This document shows positions 2,266 to 20,112 of a stretch of 24,250 nt of DNA, in pieces. How positions within the stretch are numbered: position 1 is the stretch's first letter; each line of letters opens with the position of its first letter. The DNA is taken from the IMG/VR virus record IMGVR_UViG_2162886007_000094, positions 1 to 24,250 of that record; one strand, written 5' to 3'. This stretch comes from a virus. Below the pieces are notes generated by a model. That model saw nothing but the letters and a program-made list of their open reading frames with translations. It was not told where the DNA came from and did no database searches. A program made the translations under genes and the position numbers.

Positions 2266-3534
2266 TTATTTAGCTCCTTTGTTGCGTAATGATGCTGGTA
2301 CTTTTGGTTCTGACTTAGAATCATTACCAACGAATTTTTTACCAATTTCAGGTTTTTTAATTTGCATTGTTTTTGCAGCAGCATATGCACTATTCAATGC
2401 ACAATCTTGCAATTTTAATGCCTGATCAACGGTATAAGAGCCAGTTGATGCAACAGCAGCAGCCTTAGCTTGACGAGCTGACATGCCATCTTTAAATGCA
2501 ACTTTAGGGAAGCTTGCCTTTGCATCGCCAAGAGTTGCAGAATTATCTTCAGCATCTTTAAGAGATTTATTCTCTTCTTCTAGCTGAGCGATTTTTGCAT
2601 CTTTTTCCTGAAGCTGAGCTTCAAGGTCAGCCAATTCAGCAGCAGCAGCAGCCGTATCTTCATCCGTTACGGTAGTTGCTGGAACTTCTTCCTCAATCTG
2701 AGAAGCAAGCTCTTCAGCTTGAGCAGTTGCCGCTTGAGCATCATCAAGTACAGCCTGGGCCTCTTCGGTTAAAGAAGCCGCTTCAGCTTGAAGCTCTTGG
2801 ACCGCAGCCGCCTTTTCTTCAGTAGTAGCATCAGCACTTAAAACAACTTCTTCAGCGTCAGCTAACTTTTTATCAAAATCCGCTTTAGCATCATTTAATT
2901 TTTTCTTACGATCATTAAGTTTAATCTTGGCATCGCCAAATTTAACTGAGGTTGATTTTTTAGGCTTGCGACCTAAAATCTTATCAAGCATGGTTCGCTT
3001 TTTTGTCATCTCTTTGGGTTTCCCATCATTAAGATTTAGTTTGCATTCACTGCCGCATCGACCTTCATCAAGAACTGCCAAATGATTGCCGCGAATATTT
3101 ACTTTAGTGAGCTTGCCATTAATAGTTTCAATGTCAGCGTCATAACCGCATGATACCTCACTAGTTCCGTCTTGAATAGTCTTGATGGCATTGGCAGAAT
3201 TAATAATAGCATCGCCAAGCAAAAACTTTCTATCCTCACTAGGTCGAACGTTTACGATAGTACCTTTGGTCAACTCCTCCCAGTTCTTTGAGTTAACCTC
3301 CATTTCTTCTGGATGGTTAATTGTAATAGGAACATTTTCAAAAGATTTAATTGTATCAGGGCTAAAAAGCTCATCCTCATTTACATAAACGTCGTAAATC
3401 TTATTTTCTTCTTTACCAAGATCGGAACCTAAATACTCCATAGGTCCAGTGCGAGCAAGCTTTACGCCCTCTGAAATTAGGTAGCCAGCATCTGTTAGCT
3501 TAAACCTAGCTCTTGCATTGTCATTCAGTTTCAT
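2266..3534 (-). CDS. DUF2213 protein: probable prohead protease fused to scaffold
   Basis: A 422-residue protein. Residues 1-170 match DUF2213: LTDAGYLISEGVKLARTGP, ITINHPEE, and SCGYDADI, a layout seen in phage prohead protease-type proteins. Residues 200-350 are Ala/Glu/Lys-rich and strongly predicted coiled coil (repeated EELASQIEEE, LEAQLQEKDAKIAQLEEE), as expected for an assembly scaffold. The C-terminus is basic. An internal ATG near residue 177 (MTKKRTMLDKILG) could start a separate scaffold, as in lambda C/Nu3, but its ribosome site is weak. It is the first gene of the capsid operon and has its own upstream promoter. Protease catalysis is a family-based inference; the exact catalytic residues were not assigned. 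Confidence 0.8.
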   Translation of the reverse strand: MKLNDNARARFKLTDAGYLISEGVKLARTGPMEYLGSDLGKEENKIYDVYVNEDELFSPDTIKSFENVPITINHPEEMEVNSKNWEELTKGTIVNVRPSEDRKFLLGDAIINSANAIKTIQDGTSEVSCGYDADIETINGKLTKVNIRGNHLAVLDEGRCGSECKLNLNDGKPKEMTKKRTMLDKILGRKPKKSTSVKFGDAKIKLNDRKKKLNDAKADFDKKLADAEEVVLSADATTEEKAAAVQELQAEAASLTEEAQAVLDDAQAATAQAEELASQIEEEVPATTVTDEDTAAAAAELADLEAQLQEKDAKIAQLEEENKSLKDAEDNSATLGDAKASFPKVAFKDGMSARQAKAAAVASTGSYTVDQALKLQDCALNSAYAAAKTMQIKKPEIGKKFVGNDSKSEPKVPASLRNKGAK

Positions 3535-3561
3535 AATATTAAAGCCTTATCAATAATCCCT

Positions 3562-3590
3562 ATAATACCAATTACAAAAACGGCTTGCAA
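3562..3590 (-). promoter_or_regulatory. Predicted promoter for the leftward capsid operon
   Basis: Minus-strand TTGCAA, 17-base spacer, TATTAT with an extended TGG just before the -10. It starts 28 bases upstream of the DUF2213 gene and would restart head-gene transcription beyond the oppositely oriented cassette. Confidence 0.55.
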
Positions 3591-3627
3591 ATTATGATTA
3601 ATACATAAAATTTACAATTAATTTATT

Positions 3628-3641
3628 TTTGCTATTGCAAA
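3628..3641. promoter_or_regulatory. Operator-like 14-bp dyad at the cassette promoter
   Basis: TTTGCTATTGCAAA has perfect 5-bp inverted arms (TTTGC / GCAAA) around TATT. It covers the -35 box of the rightward cassette promoter. Seven related sites occur elsewhere in the window. Confidence 0.6.
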
Positions 3642-3663
3642 ATAAAGTTAATGTCGATACTAT
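3635..3663 (+). promoter_or_regulatory. Predicted promoter of the plus-strand cassette
   Basis: TTGCAA (3635-3640), 17-base spacer, TACTAT (3658-3663). The same hexamers and spacing are used at the leftward promoter near 11140. The first cassette gene starts 25 bases downstream. Confidence 0.62.
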
Positions 3664-3688
3664 AAATTATCTTTTGGGAGGGCTGGGA

Positions 3689-3880
3689 ATGAAAGTATTA
3701 AGTTCTATAGAAATGGAAGCATCAATTAAATTGGAAATGCAACTAAAAGAAAGAGAAGTGTGGACAAGAGTTGCTTGTTCAGTGGCTAGTGCTAATGATT
3801 GTAAGAATACAGGCGTAGCAATTCACTGGGCTAATACTATTACAGATGCTTATGTCAAAAGATTTGGAGATTCAAAATGA
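3689..3880 (+). CDS. Small hypothetical protein, first gene of the reversed cassette
   Basis: A 63-residue soluble protein that I do not recognise. It begins with a helical, charged segment (EMEASIKLEMQLKEREVW) and ends with AIHWANTITDAYVKRFGDSK. The ATG at 3689 follows a GGGAGG ribosome site; a longer open frame exists upstream but would start inside the promoter. It is the promoter-proximal gene of the plus-strand cassette inserted between the head genes. Confidence 0.62.
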   Translation: MKVLSSIEMEASIKLEMQLKEREVWTRVACSVASANDCKNTGVAIHWANTITDAYVKRFGDSK

Positions 3881-3928
3881 CCAAATCAAAAAAGCAGCAG
3901 ATAGAAAGTATTTGAAGGAGATCCAAAA

Positions 3929-4144
3929 ATGGTTACTATTGAAGTTCACTCACATGTAAAACCAAAGTGCTTGACAATAATTGCAAAGCAGAATGGTAAG
4001 CAATTGCTGAAGTCGCCAATGATGTGTAAAACAATGACACAAAAGACAATTGAATCTCAAATTCGCAAGGATTTAAAGATTTATGACACGCCACTATATG
4101 GTGGAATATCGATTGTATATTTCGTAAAAATTGGAGATAAATAA
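3929..4144 (+). CDS. Small hypothetical protein
   Basis: 71 residues, basic, with three Met-rich/Thr-rich central positions (SPMMCKTMTQKT) and a hydrophobic, Gly-containing C-terminal third (PLYGGISIVYFVKIG). AAGGAG lies 8 bases before the ATG. The next gene begins 1 base after its stop. No family recognised. The strong ribosome site and tight spacing support that it is real. Confidence 0.62.
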   Translation: MVTIEVHSHVKPKCLTIIAKQNGKQLLKSPMMCKTMTQKTIESQIRKDLKIYDTPLYGGISIVYFVKIGDK

Positions 4145-4145
4145 G

Positions 4146-4379
4146 ATGAGCCATAAAGATTACAAAAATCTATGCAAGCGTGTCGCACTTATTAATAAAG
4201 GTGCGGCCAGATATATGCGAACCAAAGCAATTAAACTGGATGGATTTGCTTATGCCAAAATAATCATGGGTTGTTTTTATTTTGGAGATACTCCTCAAGG
4301 AATTGAATATTGGCAAAATATCTCAAGACAATTGAGTGAGGGAATGATTATCCAAAAACGTGACTGGGTGAAGGGATGA
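4146..4379 (+). CDS. Small hypothetical phage protein
   Basis: 77 residues starting MSHKDYKNLCKRV, with a conserved-looking middle (DGFAYAKIIMGCFYFGDTPQG) and an aromatic end (IEYWQNISRQL). GGAG lies 9 bases before this ATG; an upstream in-frame ATG at 4131 overlaps the previous gene and has no better site. The stop overlaps the next start (ATGA). It looks like small proteins frequent in Moraxellaceae phages, but the function is unknown. Confidence 0.65.
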   Translation: MSHKDYKNLCKRVALINKGAARYMRTKAIKLDGFAYAKIIMGCFYFGDTPQGIEYWQNISRQLSEGMIIQKRDWVKG

Positions 4380-4531
4380 CTAGAACAGAGCTACTGGTGG
4401 AAGGTAATAGCCTTGCATGTAATGGCGAGATAATTATAAACCACGAAGGCAGATGGCAGGTTTTTGGATCCACAAAGTTTTTTAGAACTTTAGAAGAGGC
4501 TGTTAAGTTCTGCATGGAGAAGAGCCAATGA
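4376..4531 (+). CDS. Very small hypothetical protein, paralogue of the 5467 gene
   Basis: 51 residues, joined to both neighbours by ATGA overlaps (4376-4379 and 4528-4531), with GAAGGG just upstream. Its end, TLEEAVKFCMEKSQ, matches TLEEAIKYCLECDQ at the end of the product encoded at 5467-5628, and both have a short beta-rich front half (LACNGEIIINHEGRW / IHCKGKMICFEQL). The two are likely duplicates. Function unknown. Confidence 0.6.
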   Translation: MTRTELLVEGNSLACNGEIIINHEGRWQVFGSTKFFRTLEEAVKFCMEKSQ

Positions 4532-4944
4532 GAGCAGAACAATTTATCAAAGACCACGGTTTAGAACGGGCGAGAGAGGTTGTTGAGGGTGCGCCTGAAG
4601 GGTCGACTCATTTTGTAGGTTCTACATATTTAAAGCTTATTGGTGCAGTTTGGTGGAATGCATGGTTGTCAGAGTGGAATCACAAGGACAGCAGCATGGT
4701 CAAGAGATGGAAATGTGAAAGCATTGAACTGATAAAGACTTGGGGTGATGTTTTTAAATTGGACGAGATAAAACGCCTCGTGGAGTCGGTGGATTTATTC
4801 AAAAAACTGAAGACTAAAAAGAATGCTAATCGTGAGTTTATGAAGGCTTGCATGAGAGGGCAGACAGAGCGAGCAAACCAGATCAAGCGAGCAATCGATG
4901 CACATGATGCCATCTATGGAAAGAAAGGAGCCAGCCATGAGTGA
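4528..4944 (+). CDS. Hypothetical phage protein, 138 residues
   Basis: The largest product of the cassette. The N-terminus (AEQFIKDHGLERAREVVEGAPEG in outline, followed by STHF) and a WWNAWLSEW segment are of a type found in many small phage early proteins. The C-terminal half is highly charged and helical (KLKTKKNANREFMKACMRG, then RANQIKRAIDAHDAIYGK). It overlaps the genes on both sides. Nothing identifies an enzyme. A basic helical end could bind nucleic acid, which is only a guess. Confidence 0.72.
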   Translation: MRAEQFIKDHGLERAREVVEGAPEGSTHFVGSTYLKLIGAVWWNAWLSEWNHKDSSMVKRWKCESIELIKTWGDVFKLDEIKRLVESVDLFKKLKTKKNANREFMKACMRGQTERANQIKRAIDAHDAIYGKKGASHE

Positions 4945-5116
4945 GTTTAAAGAAGAACCATGTCAACACGTGTGGAATGAAACAACTAGTAATGGTGATA
5001 AGTATAGATTCTTTGTTTGTAAGCACTGTGACAGCACTTGCGATTACGAGCCATTGGAAGTTTTAGACAAACCAGAAAACCACATTTCGCCAAACTGCAA
5101 AGCAAAGGATGTTTGA
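4937..5116 (+). CDS. Small zinc-ribbon-like protein
   Basis: 59 residues with a likely metal site: CQH near residue 8, CKHC near residue 28, followed by further Cys residues. AAAGGAG sits 6 bases before the ATG and the start overlaps the end of the previous gene by 8 bases. The pattern CQHxW...CxHC is shared with the 33-residue product at 5625-5726, so these look like paralogues. Zinc binding is inferred from Cys/His spacing only. Confidence 0.62.
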   Translation: MSEFKEEPCQHVWNETTSNGDKYRFFVCKHCDSTCDYEPLEVLDKPENHISPNCKAKDV

Positions 5117-5117
5117 G

Positions 5118-5474
5118 ATGGTTAAATATAAAGATCAGATAGTTGATTGCAAGTGGATTAACGATCCCAAGCAAGAGGAAGTGATTCAGCTTAAAGCGAA
5201 AGTGGAGGAGCTGCAAGAAGAGTTCGCCGAAGATGAACGATTCTTAAAAGAGCAGATCAAAGATAAAGACTTAAAAATTGAAAACCTTGAATATCTGCAA
5301 GGCATGGATAAAGAACTTATTCAGACATTACAGGGCAAGGTTAATGAGCTGCAAAATCGGGTGGATGCAGCACTAAGTCATCTTGGTGATGTGAATTTTC
5401 CACCAGATTACGAAGACGCATGGGAGAGTTTTTACAAGGCAGAGCAAGCGCTCAAGGGGGAGGCAGATGATTAA
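5118..5474 (+). CDS. Small coiled-coil protein
   Basis: 118 residues. From about residue 15 to 85 the sequence is a strong heptad-type coiled coil rich in Glu, Lys and Leu (VIQLKAKVEELQEEFAEDER, LIQTLQGKVNELQNRV). The C-terminus contains FPPDYEDAWESFYKAEQAL. AAGGA lies 8 bases before the ATG at 5118, which I prefer over the ATG three codons earlier. It overlaps the next gene by 8 bases. No known family; it is probably an oligomer. Confidence 0.68.
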   Translation: MVKYKDQIVDCKWINDPKQEEVIQLKAKVEELQEEFAEDERFLKEQIKDKDLKIENLEYLQGMDKELIQTLQGKVNELQNRVDAALSHLGDVNFPPDYEDAWESFYKAEQALKGEADD

Positions 5475-5628
5475 AGCAGAAGTGATATTTGATGGTGATG
5501 AAATTCACTGCAAAGGAAAAATGATCTGTTTTGAGCAGCTAACAACTGGTGATTTTCATGTTGTAGATGGTGACTTATTCAACACATTAGAAGAAGCAAT
5601 TAAATACTGTTTGGAGTGCGACCAATGA
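5467..5628 (+). CDS. Very small hypothetical protein, paralogue of the 4376 gene
   Basis: 53 residues, start inside the end of the coiled-coil gene, with GGGGGAGGC just upstream. It ends TLEEAIKYCLECDQ, the same motif as the product of 4376-4531. The stop codon overlaps the start of the next gene. Function unknown; the duplication supports that it is a real coding sequence. Confidence 0.58.
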   Translation: MIKAEVIFDGDEIHCKGKMICFEQLTTGDFHVVDGDLFNTLEEAIKYCLECDQ

Positions 5629-5726
5629 CCACATTCAAAGAGTGTCAACACGAATACCAATACAACTGGCTATTCAAAAGCCATATTTGCATACATTGTG
5701 ATGAGGTAATGAAAGATGAAGATTAA
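5625..5726 (+). CDS. 33-residue zinc-ribbon-like mini-protein
   Basis: A very short frame (MTTFKECQHEY ... HICIHCDEV) that overlaps its neighbour on each side. Cys7, His9, Cys22 and Cys25 have the same order as in the 59-residue product at 4937-5116 (CQH then CxHC), so it may be a cut-down paralogue. There is no strong ribosome site of its own; translation would rely on coupling through the ATGA overlap at 5625. Confidence 0.45.
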   Translation: MTTFKECQHEYQYNWLFKSHICIHCDEVMKDED

Positions 5727-5904
5727 ACAAATCCGCGCCAATGCTCCAGATAGTGCGACTCATTACCATAAATATTATATTGGTTATTCTACTGGATACA
5801 TGTATTACAAAATAGTTGATGGAAATTTGTATGCATGGGTATCCTGCTTTCAAGAATGGATACTTGATAAATTTACAAGAGAATCAGAATTAGAACCCCT
5901 ATAA
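5716..5904 (+). CDS. Small IRxNxPxxATHY-family phage protein
   Basis: 62 residues. It opens MKIKQIRANAPDSATHYHKY and has YYKIVDGNLYAWVS in the middle. The same plan (MKIEEIRKNKPEDATHYDP ... YYKISKHCVFFWVE) occurs in the product at 9882-10064, so the two are paralogues. This is a common small protein type in Moraxellaceae phages with no known function. It is the last cassette gene; its stop codon lies in the loop of the terminator. Confidence 0.7.
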   Translation: MKIKQIRANAPDSATHYHKYYIGYSTGYMYYKIVDGNLYAWVSCFQEWILDKFTRESELEPL

Positions 5905-5918
5905 AGGGGTTTTAATTT
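5894..5918 (+). terminator. Terminator of the plus-strand cassette
   Basis: AACCCC / GGGGTT stem with a 6-base loop followed by TT and an AT-rich tail. It lies between convergent genes. The T-run is on the plus strand only, so leftward head transcription is not obviously stopped here. Confidence 0.65.
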
Positions 5919-6759
5919 ATCCAAAGTTTACTACTGGCAATGAAGTACATCGGCAGTTGTAAATATCTCCAGCAAGAATTTCAACACCCCCAATTTCACT
6001 ACGCTTGCGCCAAGTCTTGCCGTTATCATCGCTAAATACAGTTGGGTCATCAAACTTACAAAGCTTACCATCCATTACAACATGGTCACGCCTAGTTCGC
6101 TCATCAATCACCGTAGACCAAACATAGGTTTTTGATCCAAGTGCCTCAGACCTCAATCTAGTGATTTGAGCATTTACTCTTGATGTCTCAGTACGGGCAA
6201 TAAGTTTTGCCCTGCTTTCACTTACCTTTCCTTTCTCCTTAATCTCGGTTATAAGGCGTGTAGATCGCTCACCAGCAAGAATATTGTCACGAACAACCTT
6301 ACCTACTTCTTCAGCATACTGATTCTTAATAGAAGTGATTAGGGCCGCATTCTCTGCAATCCTAACCTCTAATAATGTATCAATATCATCAGATCTAATC
6401 TGACCAGCCAAATCAACGCCAGTAGCATTTTGAATATTTTTACTCATTGATCTAGCATTATTTCTATCTAAGCGAGACAGGAAGCCTCGCGCTAGATTTT
6501 CTGCAAATGCAGCAATATTCAACTGATCAAGACGGGCGTTAATTTTTGTGAGTTGTGCAGCTAAAAATTGAACGCCTTTTTTAATAGAAGCATCATTTAC
6601 AGTAAGTGAAACTGGAGATTGTATTAGCTGAGACTCTGAGTCGTCTTTAAGCTCATTAACAACAATATCCTGCATAACACTAATTAGCTGAGATAGCTGT
6701 CTGCGATAATAAACTTCTGCTTGCTTGCTCGGTCTCACTGCCCTGATTTTGCGCGCCAT
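5917..6759 (-). CDS. MuF-like head morphogenesis protein (SPP1 gp7 family)
   Basis: A 280-residue minor head protein that acts with the portal. The C-terminal third carries the family pattern: ARTETSRVNAQITRLR, then VWSTVIDERTRRDHVVMDGK, and finally GDIYNCRCTSLP. The basic N-terminus (RPSKQAEVYYRRQLSQL) overlaps the portal gene by 80 bases in another frame. A start at Met29 would avoid that overlap, but it has no ribosome site, while AAAGGA precedes the ATG at 6759. It is the last leftward head gene before the reversed cassette. Confidence 0.86.
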   Translation of the reverse strand: MARKIRAVRPSKQAEVYYRRQLSQLISVMQDIVVNELKDDSESQLIQSPVSLTVNDASIKKGVQFLAAQLTKINARLDQLNIAAFAENLARGFLSRLDRNNARSMSKNIQNATGVDLAGQIRSDDIDTLLEVRIAENAALITSIKNQYAEEVGKVVRDNILAGERSTRLITEIKEKGKVSESRAKLIARTETSRVNAQITRLRSEALGSKTYVWSTVIDERTRRDHVVMDGKLCKFDDPTVFSDDNGKTWRKRSEIGGVEILAGDIYNCRCTSLPVVNFG

Positions 6760-8043: not shown

Positions 8044-9297
8044 TCACAGCAAGTCAAGGAAGCTACCTTTTGCCTTCATGATTGGTTCAAGAGCATAACG
8101 CAATGCATCAATATGATGGTTCCACTTATCAATAATAATTGTAAGCACCTCACCAGTTAATCTATCCGTCTTATAAGAGTAGTTATCAAACTCTTGCTTT
8201 GTGCCAACACAGCGAGAATGAATAATTATCTTATTAAACGATTTGATGAACTCAATACCATCTTCAACAGAACCCTTGCCTTTTTCACAAGGAACAACCA
8301 AAGGCATACCATTGCGCTTTAAAAAGCTAATTGTTTCTGGTCGAGAGTTATCGGCACGTGTTGAAACTTGATTTACATTTGGAACCCTATTTGAAATAAA
8401 GTTAGACATGTGATCAGTTTCAAGCCCGACCTCACTACAATCGTACTCAATGTAAAGATTTCCATCATTAATCCAACATCTAACAAATGCCATAGGATCG
8501 GCAGAGAAGCCAAAATCTAAGCCTTGATATGGGCCATCCCATGTATGATCTGGCGCAAAGTCAGAAACAACATATTTGTTTGCGAAAATTTGCGCATCAG
8601 AGTTTTGATTGTATGCACCTTCCCAAATCCAATTGTATTTTTCTGGCGTAAGATTACGCAAAGCCAAACGTCTTTGACGGTCAAGAATCTTTGGAAATCT
8701 CGGATTGTCTCTCCAGTTAATCTCAACACCAACACCAATCAATTCACCCGTATCTGGATCGTAAATCTTTTCATGTCTAAATTTCTTATCGCAAGGGCTA
8801 TCCATTTTTTCTGGGTTCCAAGTTACCCAGATTTCAGCATCGTCAATACCTCGAATTGTAGGCTCTAATTTATCCCATGCAGCCTGTGATACCGACTCAG
8901 CCTCATCAACCCAGCAAAGCAAGATACGAGCCTTAGACTTGATGCTATCAAGGTTATGACGCAAACCACAAAATAGGAATTCAACTTTTCTATTTTTTGT
9001 TCTAATGTAATTTTCGCCCATTTCGTAATAGTCATTAAGAAACGGAACCTCTTTAATTGCCTGCTTAATCTCCTCCATTGATGAGTCAGATAGAGTATTC
9101 ATGAACTCACGGCCACAAAGGATTACACCACTAATTCCAGCCTCTGCATACATGTATCCTTTTACGGCAGACATTGTGGCAAAGCCACGAGTCTTACCAG
9201 ATCCACGGCCACCCCAAGAACACCGATACATCACATTAGGCTGTGAGAATAAAGGTATTAACTTGGGTATCATCTCAATATTGGCAGAGTTACTCAT
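8044..9297 (-). CDS. terL: Terminase large subunit (packaging ATPase and nuclease)
   Basis: 417 residues. It pumps DNA into the prohead and cuts it. Walker A is GGRGSGKT at residues 29-36. The acidic Walker B pair is D131-E132 in ILLCWVDEAE, followed by the coupling-type segment WVTWNP at 158-162. The C-terminal RNase H-like nuclease starts at GLDFGFS (D261) and includes RADNSRPETISFLKR. This fits the Terminase_3/PBSX-type group. It overlaps the small-subunit gene by 8 bases. Full length and intact. Confidence 0.93.
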   Translation of the reverse strand: MSNSANIEMIPKLIPLFSQPNVMYRCSWGGRGSGKTRGFATMSAVKGYMYAEAGISGVILCGREFMNTLSDSSMEEIKQAIKEVPFLNDYYEMGENYIRTKNRKVEFLFCGLRHNLDSIKSKARILLCWVDEAESVSQAAWDKLEPTIRGIDDAEIWVTWNPEKMDSPCDKKFRHEKIYDPDTGELIGVGVEINWRDNPRFPKILDRQRRLALRNLTPEKYNWIWEGAYNQNSDAQIFANKYVVSDFAPDHTWDGPYQGLDFGFSADPMAFVRCWINDGNLYIEYDCSEVGLETDHMSNFISNRVPNVNQVSTRADNSRPETISFLKRNGMPLVVPCEKGKGSVEDGIEFIKSFNKIIIHSRCVGTKQEFDNYSYKTDRLTGEVLTIIIDKWNHHIDALRYALEPIMKAKGSFLDLL

Positions 9298-9763
9298 CTA
9301 ATGGCTTCAACCCCACTAGATTAATCGTAGTAGGCTTTTGACCCATAGAGCCATCAGAAGATGTATGATCCTGTTTCTCAGCTAATCCAAGCTCTCTTGC
9401 GATAATTGCAGAGTTAAGCAATCCAGCACTAGCACCTTCAAATTTTTGAGTATAAATTACAGCCTCAATGCGCTCACAGATGTCTAAGAAATCTTTTCTT
9501 TCTTTGTAGTTGTAATAAGCTTGACGACTAATATCCAAAAAGAAACAAAGACCCTGAATAGTCATTGCCCGCATCTTATCAATATCACCCTCAACAATAT
9601 CGCCCTCATAAGAAAACAACTTCTTTTCATTTAAAGGATTATCTTGAACCCATTCAAAATACTCACAAGCAGCCTCCCACAAATCTTCAGGCGTAGCAAA
9701 AATAGGCTTACGCCCATGACTAGATCTTTGCAACCAGAATTTATTTCCACATGGAGCGGACAT
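9290..9763 (-). CDS. terS: Terminase small subunit, P22 gp3-like
   Basis: 157 residues. It recognises phage DNA for packaging. The sequence closely follows the P22 gp3 plan as I recall it: APxGNxFWxxRSSHGRxP near the start, LWEAACEYFEWVQDNPL, KMRAMTIQGLCFFLDI and YTQKFEGASAGLLNSAIIAR. I chose ATG at 9763 because AGGAG is 8 bases upstream and P22 gp3 begins at the same point; a GTG three codons earlier overlaps the ribosome site. A P22-like small subunit hints at headful packaging, which is an inference. Confidence 0.9.
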   Translation of the reverse strand: MSAPCGNKFWLQRSSHGRKPIFATPEDLWEAACEYFEWVQDNPLNEKKLFSYEGDIVEGDIDKMRAMTIQGLCFFLDISRQAYYNYKERKDFLDICERIEAVIYTQKFEGASAGLLNSAIIARELGLAEKQDHTSSDGSMGQKPTTINLVGLKPLDE

Positions 9764-9881: not shown

Positions 9882-10064
9882 TCATAATTCATATAAATAA
9901 TCCTTATAGTTTTCCAATGTTAAAGACGAATTCATCCATTTATTTCTTTCTTCTACCCAAAAGAAAACACAATGTTTACTAATTTTATAATAAACCAACC
10001 ATCCTCTAGGATCATAATGCGTTGCATCTTCTGGCTTATTTTTACGTATTTCTTCAATTTTCAT
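9882..10064 (-). CDS. Small IRxNxPxxATHY-family phage protein
   Basis: 60 residues, paralogue of the product at 5716-5904: MKIEEIRKNKPEDATHYDP then WLVYYKISKHCVFFWVE. ATG at 10064 has GGAG 8 bases upstream; nine further codons of open frame upstream are not needed. Last gene of its operon. Unknown function. Confidence 0.72.
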   Translation of the reverse strand: MKIEEIRKNKPEDATHYDPRGWLVYYKISKHCVFFWVEERNKWMNSSLTLENYKDYLYEL

Positions 10065-10065
10065 T

Positions 10066-10263
10066 TTAATAACTCCCATATTTAAGTACACTTACAATAG
10101 AATCATTTTCTTTAGATTTTCTATTAAGCTTATCAATTTCATATTTAAGCTTATCAACCTCACCTTTCATGTAATCATAAATATAATCATGAGAAGTTTT
10201 ATTAATTCTATCTTTTAAAGGAATATTGTAAAACTCTTTAAATAATTCATTTGCTGTTTTCAT
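10066..10263 (-). CDS. Small charged helical protein
   Basis: 65 residues. It is Lys/Asp/Tyr-rich and mostly helical (NELFKEFYNIPLKDRINK, KLKYEIDKLNRKSKEND). GGAG lies 7 bases before the ATG, and the start overlaps the upstream stop by 4 bases. I do not recognise it. Confidence 0.65.
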   Translation of the reverse strand: MKTANELFKEFYNIPLKDRINKTSHDYIYDYMKGEVDKLKYEIDKLNRKSKENDSIVSVLKYGSY

Positions 10264-10583
10264 CCCTCAGCTCCCGATTCGCTTGCTTCAATCATTGCTT
10301 TGTATCCAGTTTTACTTAGTGTCGACATTGGTGCGACTGAGTAACGTTCGTAAGCTTGGAACATCTTTTCAGTTGGTACTTTTGGCACAACCACACAACC
10401 CTCTGGCACCGCCTTAGCTTTGGCTTTTTCTTGCCATGCATACCAAGCGCCATTGATAAATGATTCTGCGCACGAGTTGAACGGCAAGTCGTAAAAATCT
10501 CCATTAAAATGCGATTTTTCTTCATTTAATATTTCTGCAATATCTGGAAGCTTCTCAAAAGCCTCTATTTCATTCAATGTCAT
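10260..10583 (-). CDS. Hypothetical phage protein with VPEGxVVVPKxPT motif
   Basis: 107 residues. The second half, VPEGCVVVPKVPTEKMFQAY followed by SKTGYKAMIEASE, is a module found at the end of many small phage proteins of unknown function. The first half contains FINGAWYAWQEKAKAKA. ATG has GGAG 9 bases upstream and overlaps the previous stop by 4 bases. Confidence 0.72.
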   Translation of the reverse strand: MTLNEIEAFEKLPDIAEILNEEKSHFNGDFYDLPFNSCAESFINGAWYAWQEKAKAKAVPEGCVVVPKVPTEKMFQAYERYSVAPMSTLSKTGYKAMIEASESGAEG

Positions 10584-10918
10584 TTTTTAAATCTCCGAAT
10601 TTTAGATCCAAATGCAGAAGTTGAAATAATTTCTTTTATTGAATCTTCAAGCTCTATTGAATTTCTGCAAATGTGGCTACGACCAAGAGCAACTATTCTA
10701 AATGGATAGCCGTAATTTGCGTCATGCTCAATTGATGTGATTATTTCATTTGGCGAAAAACAACCATTAGAAATCCTAATAAAGCCATGCTCCAATCCGC
10801 AAAAATCATTTATCTGATTATTAGCATCGGTAATAATTTCACGAATCTCTTTTAAATTAGCCTGCTTATCTTCAGCGGCTTTAATTCCTTTTTTAATTGA
10901 ATCAATAAAATTAAACAC
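10580..10918 (-). CDS. Hypothetical protein, 112 residues
   Basis: GTG start at 10918 with AGGAG 6 bases upstream. The N-terminal 50 residues are helical and charged (FIDSIKKGIKAAEDKQANLK). The rest is mixed and ends in a basic stretch (SKIRRFKK). No family recognised. Its end overlaps the next gene by 4 bases, within the operon started near 11130. Confidence 0.65.
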   Translation of the reverse strand: MFNFIDSIKKGIKAAEDKQANLKEIREIITDANNQINDFCGLEHGFIRISNGCFSPNEIITSIEHDANYGYPFRIVALGRSHICRNSIELEDSIKEIISTSAFGSKIRRFKK

Positions 10919-10919
10919 A

Positions 10920-11102
10920 TCATTCTCCTAAAAATTTAAAAATAGTTAAAACAACAAATAAAATAAAAGACAATAATCCAGATACAAAAAATGACGCAAA
11001 TAATTTATAAGTAAAATAATCACTAAATGACCATTTTGTATATATTAAAATATACATCCCAAGAAATACAAACAACAACCAGCAAAATTGAATAATATTC
11101 AT
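10920..11102 (-). CDS. Small inner-membrane protein with two transmembrane segments
   Basis: 60 residues with two hydrophobic helices (about residues 3-22, IIQFCWLLFVFLGMYILI, and 36-56, FFVSGLLSFILFVVLTIF) joined by a short polar loop. AGGAGG precedes the ATG. It is the first gene behind an operator-covered promoter. It is too small and unspecific to be called a holin, and its place far from lysis genes argues against that. Confidence 0.65.
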   Translation of the reverse strand: MNIIQFCWLLFVFLGMYILIYTKWSFSDYFTYKLFASFFVSGLLSFILFVVLTIFKFLGE

Positions 11103-11135: not shown

Positions 11136-11156
11136 TTAATTATTTTACTATTGCAA
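11128..11156 (-). promoter_or_regulatory. Predicted leftward promoter for the 11102-9882 operon
   Basis: Minus-strand TTGCAA (11151-11156), 17-base spacer, TACTAT (11128-11133). It lies just after a terminator and just before the AGGAGG of the first gene. Confidence 0.65.
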
Positions 11157-11157
11157 A
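11144..11157. promoter_or_regulatory. Operator-like dyad overlapping the -35 box
   Basis: TTTACTATTGCAAA, identical to the site at 18344-18357. It contains the -35 hexamer TTGCAA. The arrangement with its partner 22 bp away is the same as at 18322/18344. Confidence 0.6.
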
Positions 11158-11166
11158 TATTTTAAG

Positions 11167-11189
11167 CAAAAAAACCTCCCGAAGGAGGC
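11167..11189 (-). terminator. Strong terminator ending the long early operon
   Basis: Minus-strand GCCTCC, TTCG tetraloop, GGAGGT, then a run of T: a textbook rho-independent terminator. It ends transcription coming from the right before the new promoter at 11156. Confidence 0.88.
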
Positions 11190-11516
11190 AGAGGAGTAAA
11201 CTTAAATGAAGTGAACAACTACGCTACTTCTACAAGTGTCATTGTTCATGTATCGGCAGAGTTGGGTTTCGGCAAAGTGGACGACCTCCCACGGACAGTA
11301 TCCAATCCTCCACATGTCTATCATGCTTTTATTCACTTCTCTAAATTGCCTACTTTCAGGCGGTCAGGCACTGCGTATGCCAAGCTTAATTAACATCAAT
11401 CGGGATTGCATGCCCCAAGCTATATACAATTAATTAAACCATACCAAACTTTCTTGGCAGTCATTTGTTTACACTGTGGTGCGTATTCCACAAAAACAAT
11501 ATTAACAAAAATACAA
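11190..11516. other. G+C-rich intergenic stretch with overlapping mini-frames
   Basis: 327 bases without a clear gene, between the nuclease gene and the terminator. A hand count gives 49 G+C in the 100 bases 11221-11320, much higher than the surroundings. On the minus strand three short frames chain together: 11364-11411 (15 residues), 11333-11371 (12 residues, GTG) and 11202-11336 (44 residues, GTG), joined by overlaps of 8 and 4 bases. No tRNA was recognised. It may hold a small coding module, a structured RNA, or a decayed gene. Confidence 0.5.
11202..11336 (-). CDS. Possible 44-residue mini-protein
   Basis: GTG start at 11336 overlaps the stop of the frame before it (GTGA); an ATG four codons later is an alternative. 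The product is unusual for this window: Cys, Trp and His-rich (MWRIGYCPWEVVHFAETQLC), ending SSVVVHFI. It uses codons such as CCG and GTC that are scarce in neighbours. It ends just before the terminator. No family recognised and the ribosome site is poor, so coding status is doubtful. Confidence 0.3.
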   Translation of the reverse strand: MNKSMIDMWRIGYCPWEVVHFAETQLCRYMNNDTCRSSVVVHFI

Positions 11517-11798
11517 TTATTTGCAAGTAACAATTTCAATAGCTTGCTCAACTGAATTTGCTACCTTAACTTGCCCATTCCAATTAACATGCCATTCAAC
11601 TTGATCAGGTGTTAACTTTTGTCCTGAAGGGGGCTTATTGCCATCCTTAATTTCAATTAAGAAATTTTCACCTCTAAATCCCACTAAAATGTCAGGACAT
11701 CCCTTCCCAACACTAGAAAGAATCTGAACACTACATCCAATCTTTCTAAGTGCTGCTACTATTTCATTTTGGTTTGCATCAATTTTAGCTGCTCTCAT
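11517..11798 (-). CDS. VRR-NUC-like PD-(D/E)XK nuclease
   Basis: 93 residues. Catalytic pattern: E12 in the first helix, P35-D36 in GCPDILVGF, and E49-I50-K51 in FLIEIKDG, the PD-(D/E)XK core. The size and LTPDQVEWH helix match small phage VRR-NUC domains, which are thought to resolve branched DNA or act in recombination. It overlaps the upstream gene by 4 bases. It is the last gene of the long leftward operon before the terminator. Family call is fairly firm; the substrate is not known. Confidence 0.8.
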   Translation of the reverse strand: MRAAKIDANQNEIVAALRKIGCSVQILSSVGKGCPDILVGFRGENFLIEIKDGNKPPSGQKLTPDQVEWHVNWNGQVKVANSVEQAIEIVTCK

Positions 11799-12710: not shown

Positions 12711-12873
12711 TTTCAACTACTCCACAAGAAATATAATTACGCTCATCTTCTGCCTTTAATGCTTCAAGTTCATTGTGAATATAATCCCATTCATCAATAA
12801 ACATCTGCAATGTTTCACCTTCTTTCAACGGATCTGATCCATTAATCTTGTCACGAATTGACTTTAGATTCAT
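12697..12873 (-). CDS. Small hypothetical protein, 58 residues
   Basis: MNLKSIRDKINGSDPLKEGE, then a helical acidic half (MFIDEWDYIHNELEALKAED). AAAGGTGA lies before the ATG, the start overlaps the upstream stop (ATGA), and the 3' end overlaps the next gene by 14 bases. The tight coupling supports it. Function unknown. Confidence 0.62.
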   Translation of the reverse strand: MNLKSIRDKINGSDPLKEGETLQMFIDEWDYIHNELEALKAEDERNYISCGVVENEAR

Positions 12874-13628
12874 AGCTCACCTTTCAATTTTTTGCGATAT
12901 TTTAAGTTTTGCTCTTTACGGCAAGCGCAACATCTACCACCATACTTACCCTCAAAAACATATCTTGTCATGCCATGATTTGAGCACTCAGCCATAAACT
13001 CAGATTTACCATCAATAATAGCCTTCTTTCTAGCCTCAATAACTGATGTTCGTCTTAGATGGTCTGGATTAGTTGATTTGGTGTATTTTGGTTTTTTAAC
13101 TCTTGGCGTAAACTCAAAAGTTTCAAGAACCAATAAAACTCTATCAAAGCTTTCATCAGAAAATACAGCATCCATACGTGCAACATTATTAAAACTTGGA
13201 ACCGAAACACCAACCAAATCACAGAATCGTTTTCTATCTCCATTGCCAAATTTAGCAATAATTTGCTTTAGATTTCTCGATTGTATAATCTGCTTTGTTG
13301 CATTATTACTACTTGATCTTTCTGTTTTAACTTTAAATGGTTTTTTTGAAATAGATTTATTTCTTTCCAAAATATCCTCATTTGAAGTCTCATGAATCTC
13401 AATTGCATTTGGTGATCGCTCCCATCCAGCAGCAACCTTGGCGCTTAAACCACCTTTACCAAAAGCAGTATGGCCCAATGGAACTTCATTTATTTCACCA
13501 CCTTTTGCAAGAAATTCATCAATCTCACTATTTAATTTATCCCTAGCCTCTTGCTTGTCTTTCACGCCAGTAAAGACCTGTATTCTTGAATCACGTATTA
13601 AATCAATTCTTTCCTGAATATTCACCAT
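12870..13628 (-). CDS. Possible DNA-binding protein with C-terminal zinc-finger-like site
   Basis: 252 residues. Residues 24-75 include QEARDKLNSEIDEFLAKGGE and VPLGHTAFGKGGLSAKVAAGWE. Residues 111-150 (QIIAKFGNGDRKRFCDLVGV in part) could form a helix-turn-helix. The C-terminus has C215, H218, then C233, C234 and C236 in a basic setting (ECSNHGM ... GGRCCACRKEQN), like a small zinc knuckle. Basic stretches are frequent. A regulatory or DNA-binding role is inferred; no named family recognised. Confidence 0.62.
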   Translation of the reverse strand: MVNIQERIDLIRDSRIQVFTGVKDKQEARDKLNSEIDEFLAKGGEINEVPLGHTAFGKGGLSAKVAAGWERSPNAIEIHETSNEDILERNKSISKKPFKVKTERSSSNNATKQIIQSRNLKQIIAKFGNGDRKRFCDLVGVSVPSFNNVARMDAVFSDESFDRVLLVLETFEFTPRVKKPKYTKSTNPDHLRRTSVIEARKKAIIDGKSEFMAECSNHGMTRYVFEGKYGGRCCACRKEQNLKYRKKLKGEL

Positions 13629-13870: not shown

Positions 13871-13884
13871 TTTGCTATAGTAAA
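13871..13884. promoter_or_regulatory. Operator-like 14-bp dyad
   Basis: TTTGCTATAGTAAA, covering the -10 of the leftward promoter upstream of 13849. One member of the eight-site set. Confidence 0.58.
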
Positions 13885-18044: not shown

Positions 18045-18073
18045 ATTCTGACACTACTTTATTTATTTTGCAA
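18045..18073 (-). promoter_or_regulatory. Predicted leftward promoter for the 18019 operon
   Basis: Minus-strand TTGCAA (18068-18073), 17-base spacer, CAGAAT (18045-18050) with TGT just before it (extended -10). It follows the terminator of the Cro-like gene. The -10 is weaker than at the other promoters. Confidence 0.5.
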
Positions 18074-18080
18074 TAGCAAA
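18067..18080. promoter_or_regulatory. Operator-like 14-bp dyad
   Basis: TTTGCAATAGCAAA, the exact reverse complement of the site at 3628-3641, with perfect TTTGC/GCAAA arms. It covers the -35 of the leftward promoter. Confidence 0.6.
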
Positions 18081-18335: not shown

Positions 18336-18356
18336 ATATTAAATTTACTATTGCAA
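18328..18356 (-). promoter_or_regulatory. Predicted leftward promoter of the Cro-like gene
   Basis: Minus-strand TTGCAA (18351-18356), 17-base spacer, TATCAT (18328-18333). Same layout as the promoter near 11140. Confidence 0.65.
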
Positions 18357-18357
18357 A
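18344..18357. promoter_or_regulatory. Operator-like dyad in the divergent control region
   Basis: TTTACTATTGCAAA, identical to 11144-11157. It contains the TTGCAA hexamer that can act as -35 in both directions because it is self-complementary. Confidence 0.6.
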
Positions 18358-18407: not shown

Positions 18408-19403
18408 ATGAAATATGAAGAAATGTATATTAAAGCATCCGTAAATCAAAAACCTAAAATTTATGAAGTTTTAGAAAATAATGGATTTGCGCGAATGGGA
18501 AATATGACTATTGGCGGTGTTGATGATTATGTAACAACCTATGAGAATGGGACTTATTGTGATCTTAATATGGCTTGTGTTGGATATCCTGTTTATTCAT
18601 TTGATGAATTTATTTCAAAATACGGAAAGCAAAATAAAATGATTGAATTAATCAACAAAGCAAAATCAGAGCTTAAAATGAATGATAGTGATCTATCTTT
18701 AGCTCTTGGCAAGTCGCGTCAATATATTGGAAAGATGCTTCGAATTCCTCAAACAGATAAGGTTAAGGCTTGTGTGGTTAAAGAAATTGAATCCTTAATT
18801 GCTCGTGAAAAATTTAAACCATTGTCATTATTACAAGATGATAATAAATCTAAAATTGTAGATGAAGTTAAAATCAAAATTAATGTTGATTCTAGTGAAA
18901 TTCAAGAAATAATTAATACTGAGTTAAACGCTTTGCGTGAAAATGCAAATGAAATATCAAACAATCTTAAATCAAAACTTTCCGATAGCAAGAAAGAAAT
19001 TGTTAAGAAGGCCAACAAAATTAAAGAATTTAAGGCATCTGTTGCATTCTTAAATGGTGAAATTGAAAAGCTAAAATTCAATCATTCAAAGCAAGTAACA
19101 GATCTTCAGAAGACGAATGAAAATCAGAAGGCTGTAATTGACAAACTTGACGATCAATTAATTGCGGCTGAAAAAATTCACAATCAAGACATTAAGTTAT
19201 TGAATGCAAAAGATTCAAGTATTAATGAATTGAAGCGAGATATCGGATTCATGAAGCAGGATTTAAACAAAGGTAATTATAATTACAGTGCATTAAAATA
19301 TGAATTTAATACACTTAAATCATCATATGCAACTTCCAAATCATTGAATTGGTTCTTGATTGTATCTGTTATTCTTGCTGCTCTATGGTGTTGGTATGTC
19401 TGA
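18408..19403 (+). CDS. HTH-like, coiled-coil, C-terminally membrane-anchored protein
   Basis: 331 residues. Residues 1-75 form a small domain ending PVYSFDEFISKYGKQ. Residues 79-113 (IELINKAKSELKMNDSDLSL, then GKSRQYIGKML) read like a helix-turn-helix. Residues about 155-310 are a long coiled coil (Lys/Glu/Asn-rich). The last 20 residues, SLNWFLIVSVILAALWCWYV, are a single transmembrane helix with no loop after it, so the bulk should face the cytoplasm. It occupies the slot opposite the Cro-like gene where a main repressor would normally be. Candidate roles are membrane-tethered regulator or superinfection exclusion; neither is shown. Confidence 0.75.
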   Translation: MKYEEMYIKASVNQKPKIYEVLENNGFARMGNMTIGGVDDYVTTYENGTYCDLNMACVGYPVYSFDEFISKYGKQNKMIELINKAKSELKMNDSDLSLALGKSRQYIGKMLRIPQTDKVKACVVKEIESLIAREKFKPLSLLQDDNKSKIVDEVKIKINVDSSEIQEIINTELNALRENANEISNNLKSKLSDSKKEIVKKANKIKEFKASVAFLNGEIEKLKFNHSKQVTDLQKTNENQKAVIDKLDDQLIAAEKIHNQDIKLLNAKDSSINELKRDIGFMKQDLNKGNYNYSALKYEFNTLKSSYATSKSLNWFLIVSVILAALWCWYV

Positions 19404-19719: not shown

Positions 19720-19748
19720 TTGACAATTCTGAATTATTATTTTACTAT
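19720..19748 (+). promoter_or_regulatory. Predicted promoter of the lipoprotein/recombination operon
   Basis: TTGACA (19720-19725), 17-base spacer, TACTAT (19743-19748). Consensus -35, with the operator dyad over the -10. Confidence 0.7.
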
Positions 19749-19754
19749 AGCAAA
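19741..19754. promoter_or_regulatory. Operator-like 14-bp dyad
   Basis: TTTACTATAGCAAA, overlapping the -10 of the rightward promoter. Single copy here; no partner 22 bp upstream. Confidence 0.58.
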
Positions 19755-19773: not shown

Positions 19774-20112
19774 ATGAATAAATTATTGATTTTAGTTGGA
19801 GCTTTAGCAATGATAGCGTGTACAAATCACACACCAGTTATTCATGGTCCTTATGAGATTGAGTCGGTAGACTTAAAAAATGATGTAGCTGCAATTAAGT
19901 CAGGAGACTTGGTTTTGGAAGTTGAATTTGATCCTATGTATTTTAAAGATGGAAATGGATATGCATCTTGGAATGAATTTACAATTCATGAAGTTAAAAA
20001 TGTAAAAGTATTCAATGAGGATGGTGAAACAGAAAAATATGTTTTGCCAAGTGAAGAAGTATCAAACATTGTAAATTTAATTGAAAAAGAAGTTGCGGAG
20101 AATCTAGAGTGA
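19774..20112 (+). CDS. Phage-encoded lipoprotein
   Basis: 112 residues. A signal peptide (MNKLLILVGALAMIAC) with a lipobox-like LAMIAC predicts lipidation at C16 and export to the periplasm or outer membrane. The mature part is acidic and beta-rich (GDLVLEVEFDPMYFKDGNG, FTIHEVKNVKVFNEDGE). GAGGAG precedes the ATG. First gene of the operon that also encodes RecT and the exonuclease. Phage lipoproteins can block superinfection; here that is a guess. Confidence 0.76.
   Translation: MNKLLILVGALAMIACTNHTPVIHGPYEIESVDLKNDVAAIKSGDLVLEVEFDPMYFKDGNGYASWNEFTIHEVKNVKVFNEDGETEKYVLPSEEVSNIVNLIEKEVAENLE

What the first reader, a model, noticed from the sequence alone, without database searches (positions are those of the whole stretch)
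3535..5918. Ten-gene cassette inserted head-on in the middle of the head operon
Between the MuF and DUF2213 genes lies a complete plus-strand unit: promoter with the common operator dyad, ten tightly overlapping small genes, terminator. Extra genes in late operons usually point the same way or are single genes. Here the set shares its operator with the early region, so it should be expressed early or be repressed together with the lytic genes. This may be a variable accessory (anti-defence) locus.
Basis: partly seen in the sequence, partly recalled or inferred. Interest (0 to 1): 0.6.

Follow-up and report, generated by a model that had tools for sequence, protein, structure and literature searches.

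The report
Backwards early operon inside phage head genes
A block of ten small genes sits backwards inside the head-building operon of an Acinetobacter-type phage, under the phage's own early-gene switch; related phages carry the same operon the other way round at the same spot, or nothing there, so this is a swappable accessory site whose genes still have no known function.

Summary
Between MuF (5917-6759, -) and DUF2213 (2266-3534, -) lies a complete + strand unit: a promoter (TTGCAA-17-TACTAT) with an operator dyad over its -35, ten tightly packed genes, and a strong terminator hairpin. The operator occurs 6 times in the window (0.16 expected), each time at a candidate promoter.
The closest relative that differs here (head proteins 77-92% identical) has an empty site of about 63 bp that keeps the DUF2213 promoter. 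The cassette is homologous and colinear (g3-g5/9-g6-g7-g10-g11) to an operon at the same junction of Obolenskvirus-type phages, where it runs with the head genes; in WCHABP12 it starts at that phage's own early operator. The same gene order also occurs in other Acinetobacter phage loci away from head genes. Cassette genes can be far more alike than the flanking head genes (72-77% against 24-27%), so the operon moved between phages.
Best reading: an early, host-facing accessory operon docked in inverted orientation at a hot spot that tolerates it because the capsid genes have their own promoter.
Anti-defence is untested, and prophage repression is doubtful because no tyrosine integrase was found.

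The parts
3593..5916 (+). cassette as defined by comparison with the empty relative (extra DNA between the MuF stop and the DUF2213 promoter)
   Evidence: L004 aligns with the window up to 3572 and from 5913, with about 22 bp between; junction sequences
3627..3642 (+). operator dyad TTTTGCTATTGCAAAA over the -35 of the cassette promoter
3635..3663 (+). cassette promoter TTGCAA-17-TACTAT
   Evidence: sequence; same layout at 11144(-), cro 18344(-), 18067(-)
3689..3880 (+). g1, 63 aa, phrog_13068, unknown function
3877..3915 (+). possible 12-aa ORF overlapping g1 by 4 nt (translational bridge?)
   Evidence: no homology evidence
3929..4144 (+). g3, 71 aa, phrog_18516; 73-77% identical to Obolenskvirus-type homologs at the same junction
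   Evidence: dN/dS 0.10-0.12
4146..4379 (+). g4, 77 aa, phrog_16354 (weak)
4376..4531 (+). g5, 51 aa, phrog_7780; paralog of g9
4528..4944 (+). g6, 138 aa, phrog_1245; conserved ends, variable middle
4937..5116 (+). g7, 59 aa, Cys/His-rich, conserved C-terminal end
5118..5474 (+). g8, 118-121 aa (start 5109 or 5118), coiled coil
5467..5628 (+). g9, 53 aa, phrog_7780
5625..5726 (+). g10, 33 aa, Cys/His-rich
   Evidence: homologs 66-71% in L014/L015
5716..5904 (+). g11, 62 aa, phrog_7563; paralog of 10091-9882(-)
   Evidence: 72.5% to L090
5887..5918 (+). terminator hairpin between the convergent g11 and MuF ends
3562..3590 (-). promoter of the DUF2213-capsid segment, TTGCAA-17-TATTAT with extended -10 (TGGTATTAT)
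   Evidence: same position in L004 (TTGCAA-17-TAATAT) without a cassette
5917..6759 (-). MuF-type head protein
2266..3534 (-). DUF2213 head maturation protease
18344..18357 (.). operator between cro-like 18305-18114(-) and the divergent regulator 18408-19403(+)
18067..18080 (.). operator/promoter of the leftward early operon
11144..11157 (.). operator/promoter of the small-gene set 11102-9882(-) in front of TerS
13871..13884 (.). operator over the -10 in front of 13849-13628(-)
19741..19754 (.). operator over the -10 in front of 19774-20112(+)

Best explanation
The block is an early-class accessory operon of Acinetobacter phages that has been docked, inverted, into the MuF/DUF2213 junction of the head operon. 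Shown by sequence: it starts at a promoter whose -35 lies inside the operator that this phage also uses at its cro/regulator and early promoters, it ends in a terminator, and the DUF2213-capsid segment behind it has its own promoter, so both directions can be transcribed separately. Shown by comparison: the same operon, in the same gene order, lies co-directionally at this junction in Obolenskvirus-type phages, and its order recurs at loci without head genes nearby, while a close relative has the junction empty. Inferred: the operon is switched on early with the other operator-controlled genes, makes small proteins that act on the host or its defences, and is switched off later by the phage regulator and by late transcription from the opposite strand. 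Not shown: any expression, any function of a single gene, and how the block is moved.
For: Operator 6 sites against 0.16 expected, all at candidate promoters. Terminator z -5.3. Empty site in L004 with both flanks at 75-78% DNA identity. Colinear homologs at the same junction in 9 of 9 Obolenskvirus-type loci examined, opposite orientation to here. WCHABP12 has its own repeated motif ATTTACTATTGAGAAT at the operon start and at four other sites in its early and accessory regions, and its regulator is 40% identical over 142 aa to window 18408-19403. Gene order g3-g6-g7-(g8)-g10 recurs in contigs with no head gene in the fetched flank, and g6 or g3 lie behind cro/replication genes in temperate phages TPWB-05 and Ab105-2phi. 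Cassette identity to L090 72-77% while MuF is 24% and TerL 27%. Purifying selection.
Against: No RNA data. The operator could bind a protein that activates instead of represses. The Obolenskvirus-type phages are themselves related, so the nine loci are not nine independent events. No direct or inverted repeats at the cassette ends and no recombinase in it, so how it moved is unknown.
Confidence: 0.72

Rival explanations
1. Lysogenic-conversion moron: the cassette is expressed from a quiet prophage and protects the host, for example by superinfection exclusion.
For: Own promoter and terminator, and an insertion between late genes that adjoin each other in a relative, as in classical morons. A cro-like gene, a divergent regulator and a Rha/KilAC antirepressor are present.
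Against: The promoter carries the operator of the early lytic promoters instead of an independent one. No tyrosine integrase in the 41.4-kb twin; serine recombinases and transposases were not searched for.
Confidence: 0.1
2. Counter-defence island: the ten genes are mainly inhibitors of host defence systems.
For: Early-type control, small variable proteins, g6 with conserved ends and a highly variable middle, and presence/absence variation.
Against: No hit to any family of known function in Pfam, PHROGs or NCBIfam; PADLOC was also empty, but it lists defence and not anti-defence genes. Predicted folds of g3 and g6 gave no significant match. The families seem confined to Acinetobacter phages, so a host-physiology role is equally possible.
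Confidence: 0.3
3. Timing device: head-on placement is itself functional. Late transcription runs antisense through the cassette and shuts it off.
For: The terminator is directional: strong for the cassette and weaker for the late strand, so late read-through is plausible. Head-on units recur at this junction in L005, ZX7 and BCPPmi_001.
Against: The homologous operon is co-directional in Obolenskvirus-type phages, so antisense control is not needed for its function.
Confidence: 0.12
4. Self-mobile element or assembly artefact.
For: The insertion is sharply bounded, and homing-type endonucleases occur at this junction in other phages (AP22, WCHABP12, ZX7).
Against: A second IMG/VR contig has the same block at 99.9% identity, the junction is colinear with other phages, and no recombinase or endonuclease lies in the cassette.
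Confidence: 0.03

Closest known systems
[quoted passage not shown] AP22, WCHABP12, IME-AB2)
   Same: Same junction; homologous genes in the same order; the block starts at the phage's own repeated early-region motif (shown for WCHABP12)
   Different: There it is co-directional with the head genes and preceded by a non-coding element; here it is inverted, and that element lies instead at 11185-11520(-) in front of the pre-TerS gene set
Early lytic operons of temperate Acinetobacter phages (TPWB-05, Ab105-2phi)
   Same: Share gene families g3, g5/9, g6 and g10 and parts of their order
   Different: Those genes follow the cro/replication region instead of lying among head genes
Head-on small-gene sets in Proteus phages BCPPmi_001 and ZX7 and contig L005
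   Same: Same MuF/DUF2213 junction and same head-on orientation, ending in a terminator at MuF, with a separate DUF2213 promoter
   Different: No detectable homology to the cassette genes at this junction (one g11-like gene lies at the TerL/portal junction of L005); partnered with a second, co-directional gene set
Morons of lambdoid and P2-like phages, and P2/P4 hotspots (PMC9122126)
   Same: Extra genes with own signals at a fixed, variable site
   Different: Morons are typically expressed from the prophage; here the promoter carries the early lytic operator

Membership tests
Moron (independent accessory unit in a phage genome) | Extra DNA between two genes that are adjacent in a relative | tested here: met
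   L004 empty site
Moron (independent accessory unit in a phage genome) | Own promoter and terminator | tested here: met
   by sequence only
Moron (independent accessory unit in a phage genome) | Expressed independently of the lytic programme, from the prophage | tested here: inconclusive
   shares the early lytic operator, which argues against; no expression data
Moron (independent accessory unit in a phage genome) | Base composition unlike the flanking genes | tested here: not met
   cassette 38.2% GC, head genes 38.6-40.7%
Obolenskvirus MuF-protease accessory operon | Location between MuF and DUF2213 | tested here: met
Obolenskvirus MuF-protease accessory operon | Homologous genes in the same order | tested here: met
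Obolenskvirus MuF-protease accessory operon | Same orientation as head genes | tested here: not met
   inverted here
Obolenskvirus MuF-protease accessory operon | Starts at the phage's own early operator | tested here: met
Anti-defence locus | Contains a known anti-defence family | tested here: not met
   no match of known function in Pfam, PHROGs or NCBIfam; no dedicated anti-defence library was available
Anti-defence locus | Counteracts a host defence system | not testable with these tools
   needs plaque assays
Invertible DNA switch | Inverted repeats at both ends and an invertase | tested here: not met
   only two imperfect inverted repeats, both internal; no recombinase in the cassette

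The most novel reading that the evidence does not exclude
The head-on placement is a built-in timer: an early operon with the early operator lies antisense to the late head operon, so that late transcription silences it, and this convergent layout has arisen repeatedly at the same head-gene junction in unrelated phages with different genes.
Probability: 0.12. Interest if true: 0.62.

Novelty: new variant of a known kind. Interest (0 to 1): 0.45.

Why it matters
It shows one operon, with its gene order kept, moving between phages whose head genes are hardly related, and landing at the same head-gene junction in opposite orientations, in at least two phages under that phage's own early-region motif. 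That makes the MuF/DUF2213 junction a place to look for early, probably host-directed phage genes that are usually assumed to be late because of where they lie, and it gives ten small families of unknown function to test as one unit.

Tried and rejected
Generic promoter scan: not enriched over shuffles, so the promoter claim rests on the repeated operator layout. A loose dyad search with 2 mismatches was at chance; the tighter motif was not. Pfam hits for cassette proteins (TcdB_N, PNKP_ligase, PH_CERLI1, coiled-coil families) are all below the curated cut-offs and were treated as chance. Fold searches for g3 (pLDDT 87) and g6 (pLDDT 79) gave nothing significant. A class-wide genome search with phrog_1245 found nothing, with the control also silent, so it says nothing about absence. 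An invertible switch was considered and dropped: no terminal inverted repeats. Rfam gave only sub-threshold eukaryotic families, taken as chance. For the Proteus phage no repeat of the central promoter region was found elsewhere in its genome, so a shared early operator is shown only for the window phage and WCHABP12. An L009/L005 defence-gene scan was empty apart from a pentapeptide-repeat protein in L233 and a NinX homolog in L009.

Full report
What is there. The window is an IMG/VR virus contig; a second contig, IMGVR_UViG_3300005289_000001 (41,417 b, here G001), matches it at 99.95% over the parts compared. Head genes run on the - strand: TerS 9772-9290, TerL 9297-8044, portal 8020-6680, MuF 6759-5917, DUF2213 protease 3534-2266, a head protein 2263-1790, major capsid 1786-818. 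Between MuF and DUF2213 lie ten + strand genes, 3689-5904, mostly overlapping by 4-11 nt. Nine match PHROG families of unknown function. g3, g6 and g11 are under purifying selection (dN/dS 0.10-0.23, against 0.11-0.12 for MuF and DUF2213).

Signals. Upstream of g1 is TTGCAA-17-TACTAT with the dyad TTTTGCTATTGCAAAA over the -35. The 14-mer TTTGCWATWGCAAA with at most one mismatch occurs six times in the window (3628, 11144, 13871, 18067, 18344, 19741) where 0.16 are expected, and seven times in G001. Four window sites and the extra G001 site (9083) overlap a TTGCAA -35; 13871 and 19741 overlap a TACTAT -10. The site at 18344 lies between a cro-like gene (18305-18114) and a divergent regulator (18408-19403). 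The terminator between g11 and MuF folds to -17.9 kcal/mol (z -5.3) on the + strand and less well on the - strand. DUF2213 has its own candidate promoter (3590-3562, -), TTGCAA-17-TATTAT with an extended -10.

Empty site. In IMGVR_UViG_3300010373_000081 (L004), head proteins are 77-92% identical, both flanks align at 75-78% DNA identity, and MuF and DUF2213 are 63 bp apart. The DUF2213 promoter position is kept there (TTGCAA-17-TAATAT). So the extra block is about 3593-5916, and the capsid promoter does not depend on it. This relative has no copy of the operator within one mismatch.

The junction is a hot spot. Across about 50 loci (many redundant) the MuF to DUF2213 gap ranges from 3 bp to 4.5 kb. 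It is empty or nearly so in Kluyvera, Enterobacter, Morganella and Xenorhabdus prophages, holds one to three co-directional genes in many Pasteurellaceae-type loci, and holds 3.4-4.5 kb in Obolenskvirus-type phages, Proteus phages and L005. Head-on sets occur in the window, L005, ZX7 and BCPPmi_001, and by ORF prediction only in L232, L233 and L234. BCPPmi_001 has head-on sets at two further late junctions. In these Proteus phages and in several Obolenskvirus-type phages an extended -10 element (TGnTATAAT or similar) lies 35-41 bp before DUF2213, against none in the six enteric loci where the genes are directly coupled.

Same operon, other way round. tblastn of the cassette proteins against nine Obolenskvirus-type loci finds homologs of g3, g5/9, g6, g7, g10 and g11, in that order where present, inside the MuF/DUF2213 interval and co-directional with the head genes. 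The split of the Obolenskvirus structural module by variable ORFs of unknown function is already published (PMC8878043). In WCHABP12 the operon starts at ATTTACTATTGAGAAT, a motif repeated at four other places in the early and accessory regions, and its regulator shares 40% identity over 142 aa with window 18408-19403. Parts of the same order (g3-g6-g7-g8/g10, once with g11) recur in IMG/VR contigs with no head gene in the fetched flank; g6 and g3 homologs lie behind cro and replication genes in TPWB-05 and Ab105-2phi. Against contig L090 g3 and g11 are 77% and 72.5% identical while MuF is 24% and TerL 27%, which points to horizontal movement of the operon.

Mechanism, with status. Shown by sequence: self-contained unit, shared operator, separate capsid promoter. 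Shown by comparison: presence/absence, inversion relative to Obolenskvirus-type phages, movement between divergent phages. Inferred: early expression, control by the phage regulator, host-directed function, and later silencing. Unknown: which protein binds the operator, what any gene does, and how the block moves; no terminal repeats or recombinase were found. No tyrosine integrase was found in G001, so lysogeny is not established.

Verdict. Anti-defence is a reasonable guess without evidence. The head-on layout is unusual but not unique. I rate it a new variant of a known kind: an accessory operon at a phage hot spot, here inverted and carrying the phage's own early operator.

Noticed in passing
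window 11185-11520 (-); WCHABP12 NC_041924 36066-36460; L005 7761-7870: Conserved unannotated non-coding element, with a core GACCGCCTGAAAGTAGGCAAYTTAGAGAAGTGAAT and a long closing stem predicted in all 8 distinct copies folded. Similar DNA is in 62 Acinetobacter phage records and Rfam does not name it. In Obolenskvirus-type phages it sits between MuF and the accessory operon; in the window it precedes the pre-TerS gene set. Folding of the whole window copy was not better than shuffles (z -0.45)..
   Followed up: partly
window 9882-11102 (-): Second operator-led small-gene set (five genes) just before TerS, co-directional, ending in a paralog of g11; Obolenskvirus-type phages also have g11-like genes before TerS.
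   Followed up: partly
G001 9083-9557 (L081, outside the window): A seventh operator-promoter in the tail region, in front of a 136-aa gene without Pfam match.
   Followed up: partly
window 12870-13628 (-): Protein with a SutA RNA-polymerase-binding domain match (Pfam 3e-10): candidate phage transcription regulator.
   Followed up: no
window 18408-19403 (+): Regulator homologous to the Obolenskvirus regulator in its HTH part, followed by a long coiled coil and a hydrophobic C-terminal stretch.
   Followed up: partly
L005 6631-7698: A ribonucleotide reductase beta-like gene (read from the sequence, not tested by a family search) sits at the same MuF/DUF2213 junction next to a head-on set of small genes.
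   Followed up: no
g6 family, L131-L210: g6 homologs share both ends but have a highly variable middle, as if the central part is exchanged.
   Followed up: partly
L132 about 4620-5400 (-): A long reverse-strand ORF, probably a homing-type endonuclease, lies right after MuF in this Obolenskvirus-type contig.
   Followed up: no
L007 9998-10842: MuF of the twin contig is split in three frames, probably sequencing errors.
   Followed up: no
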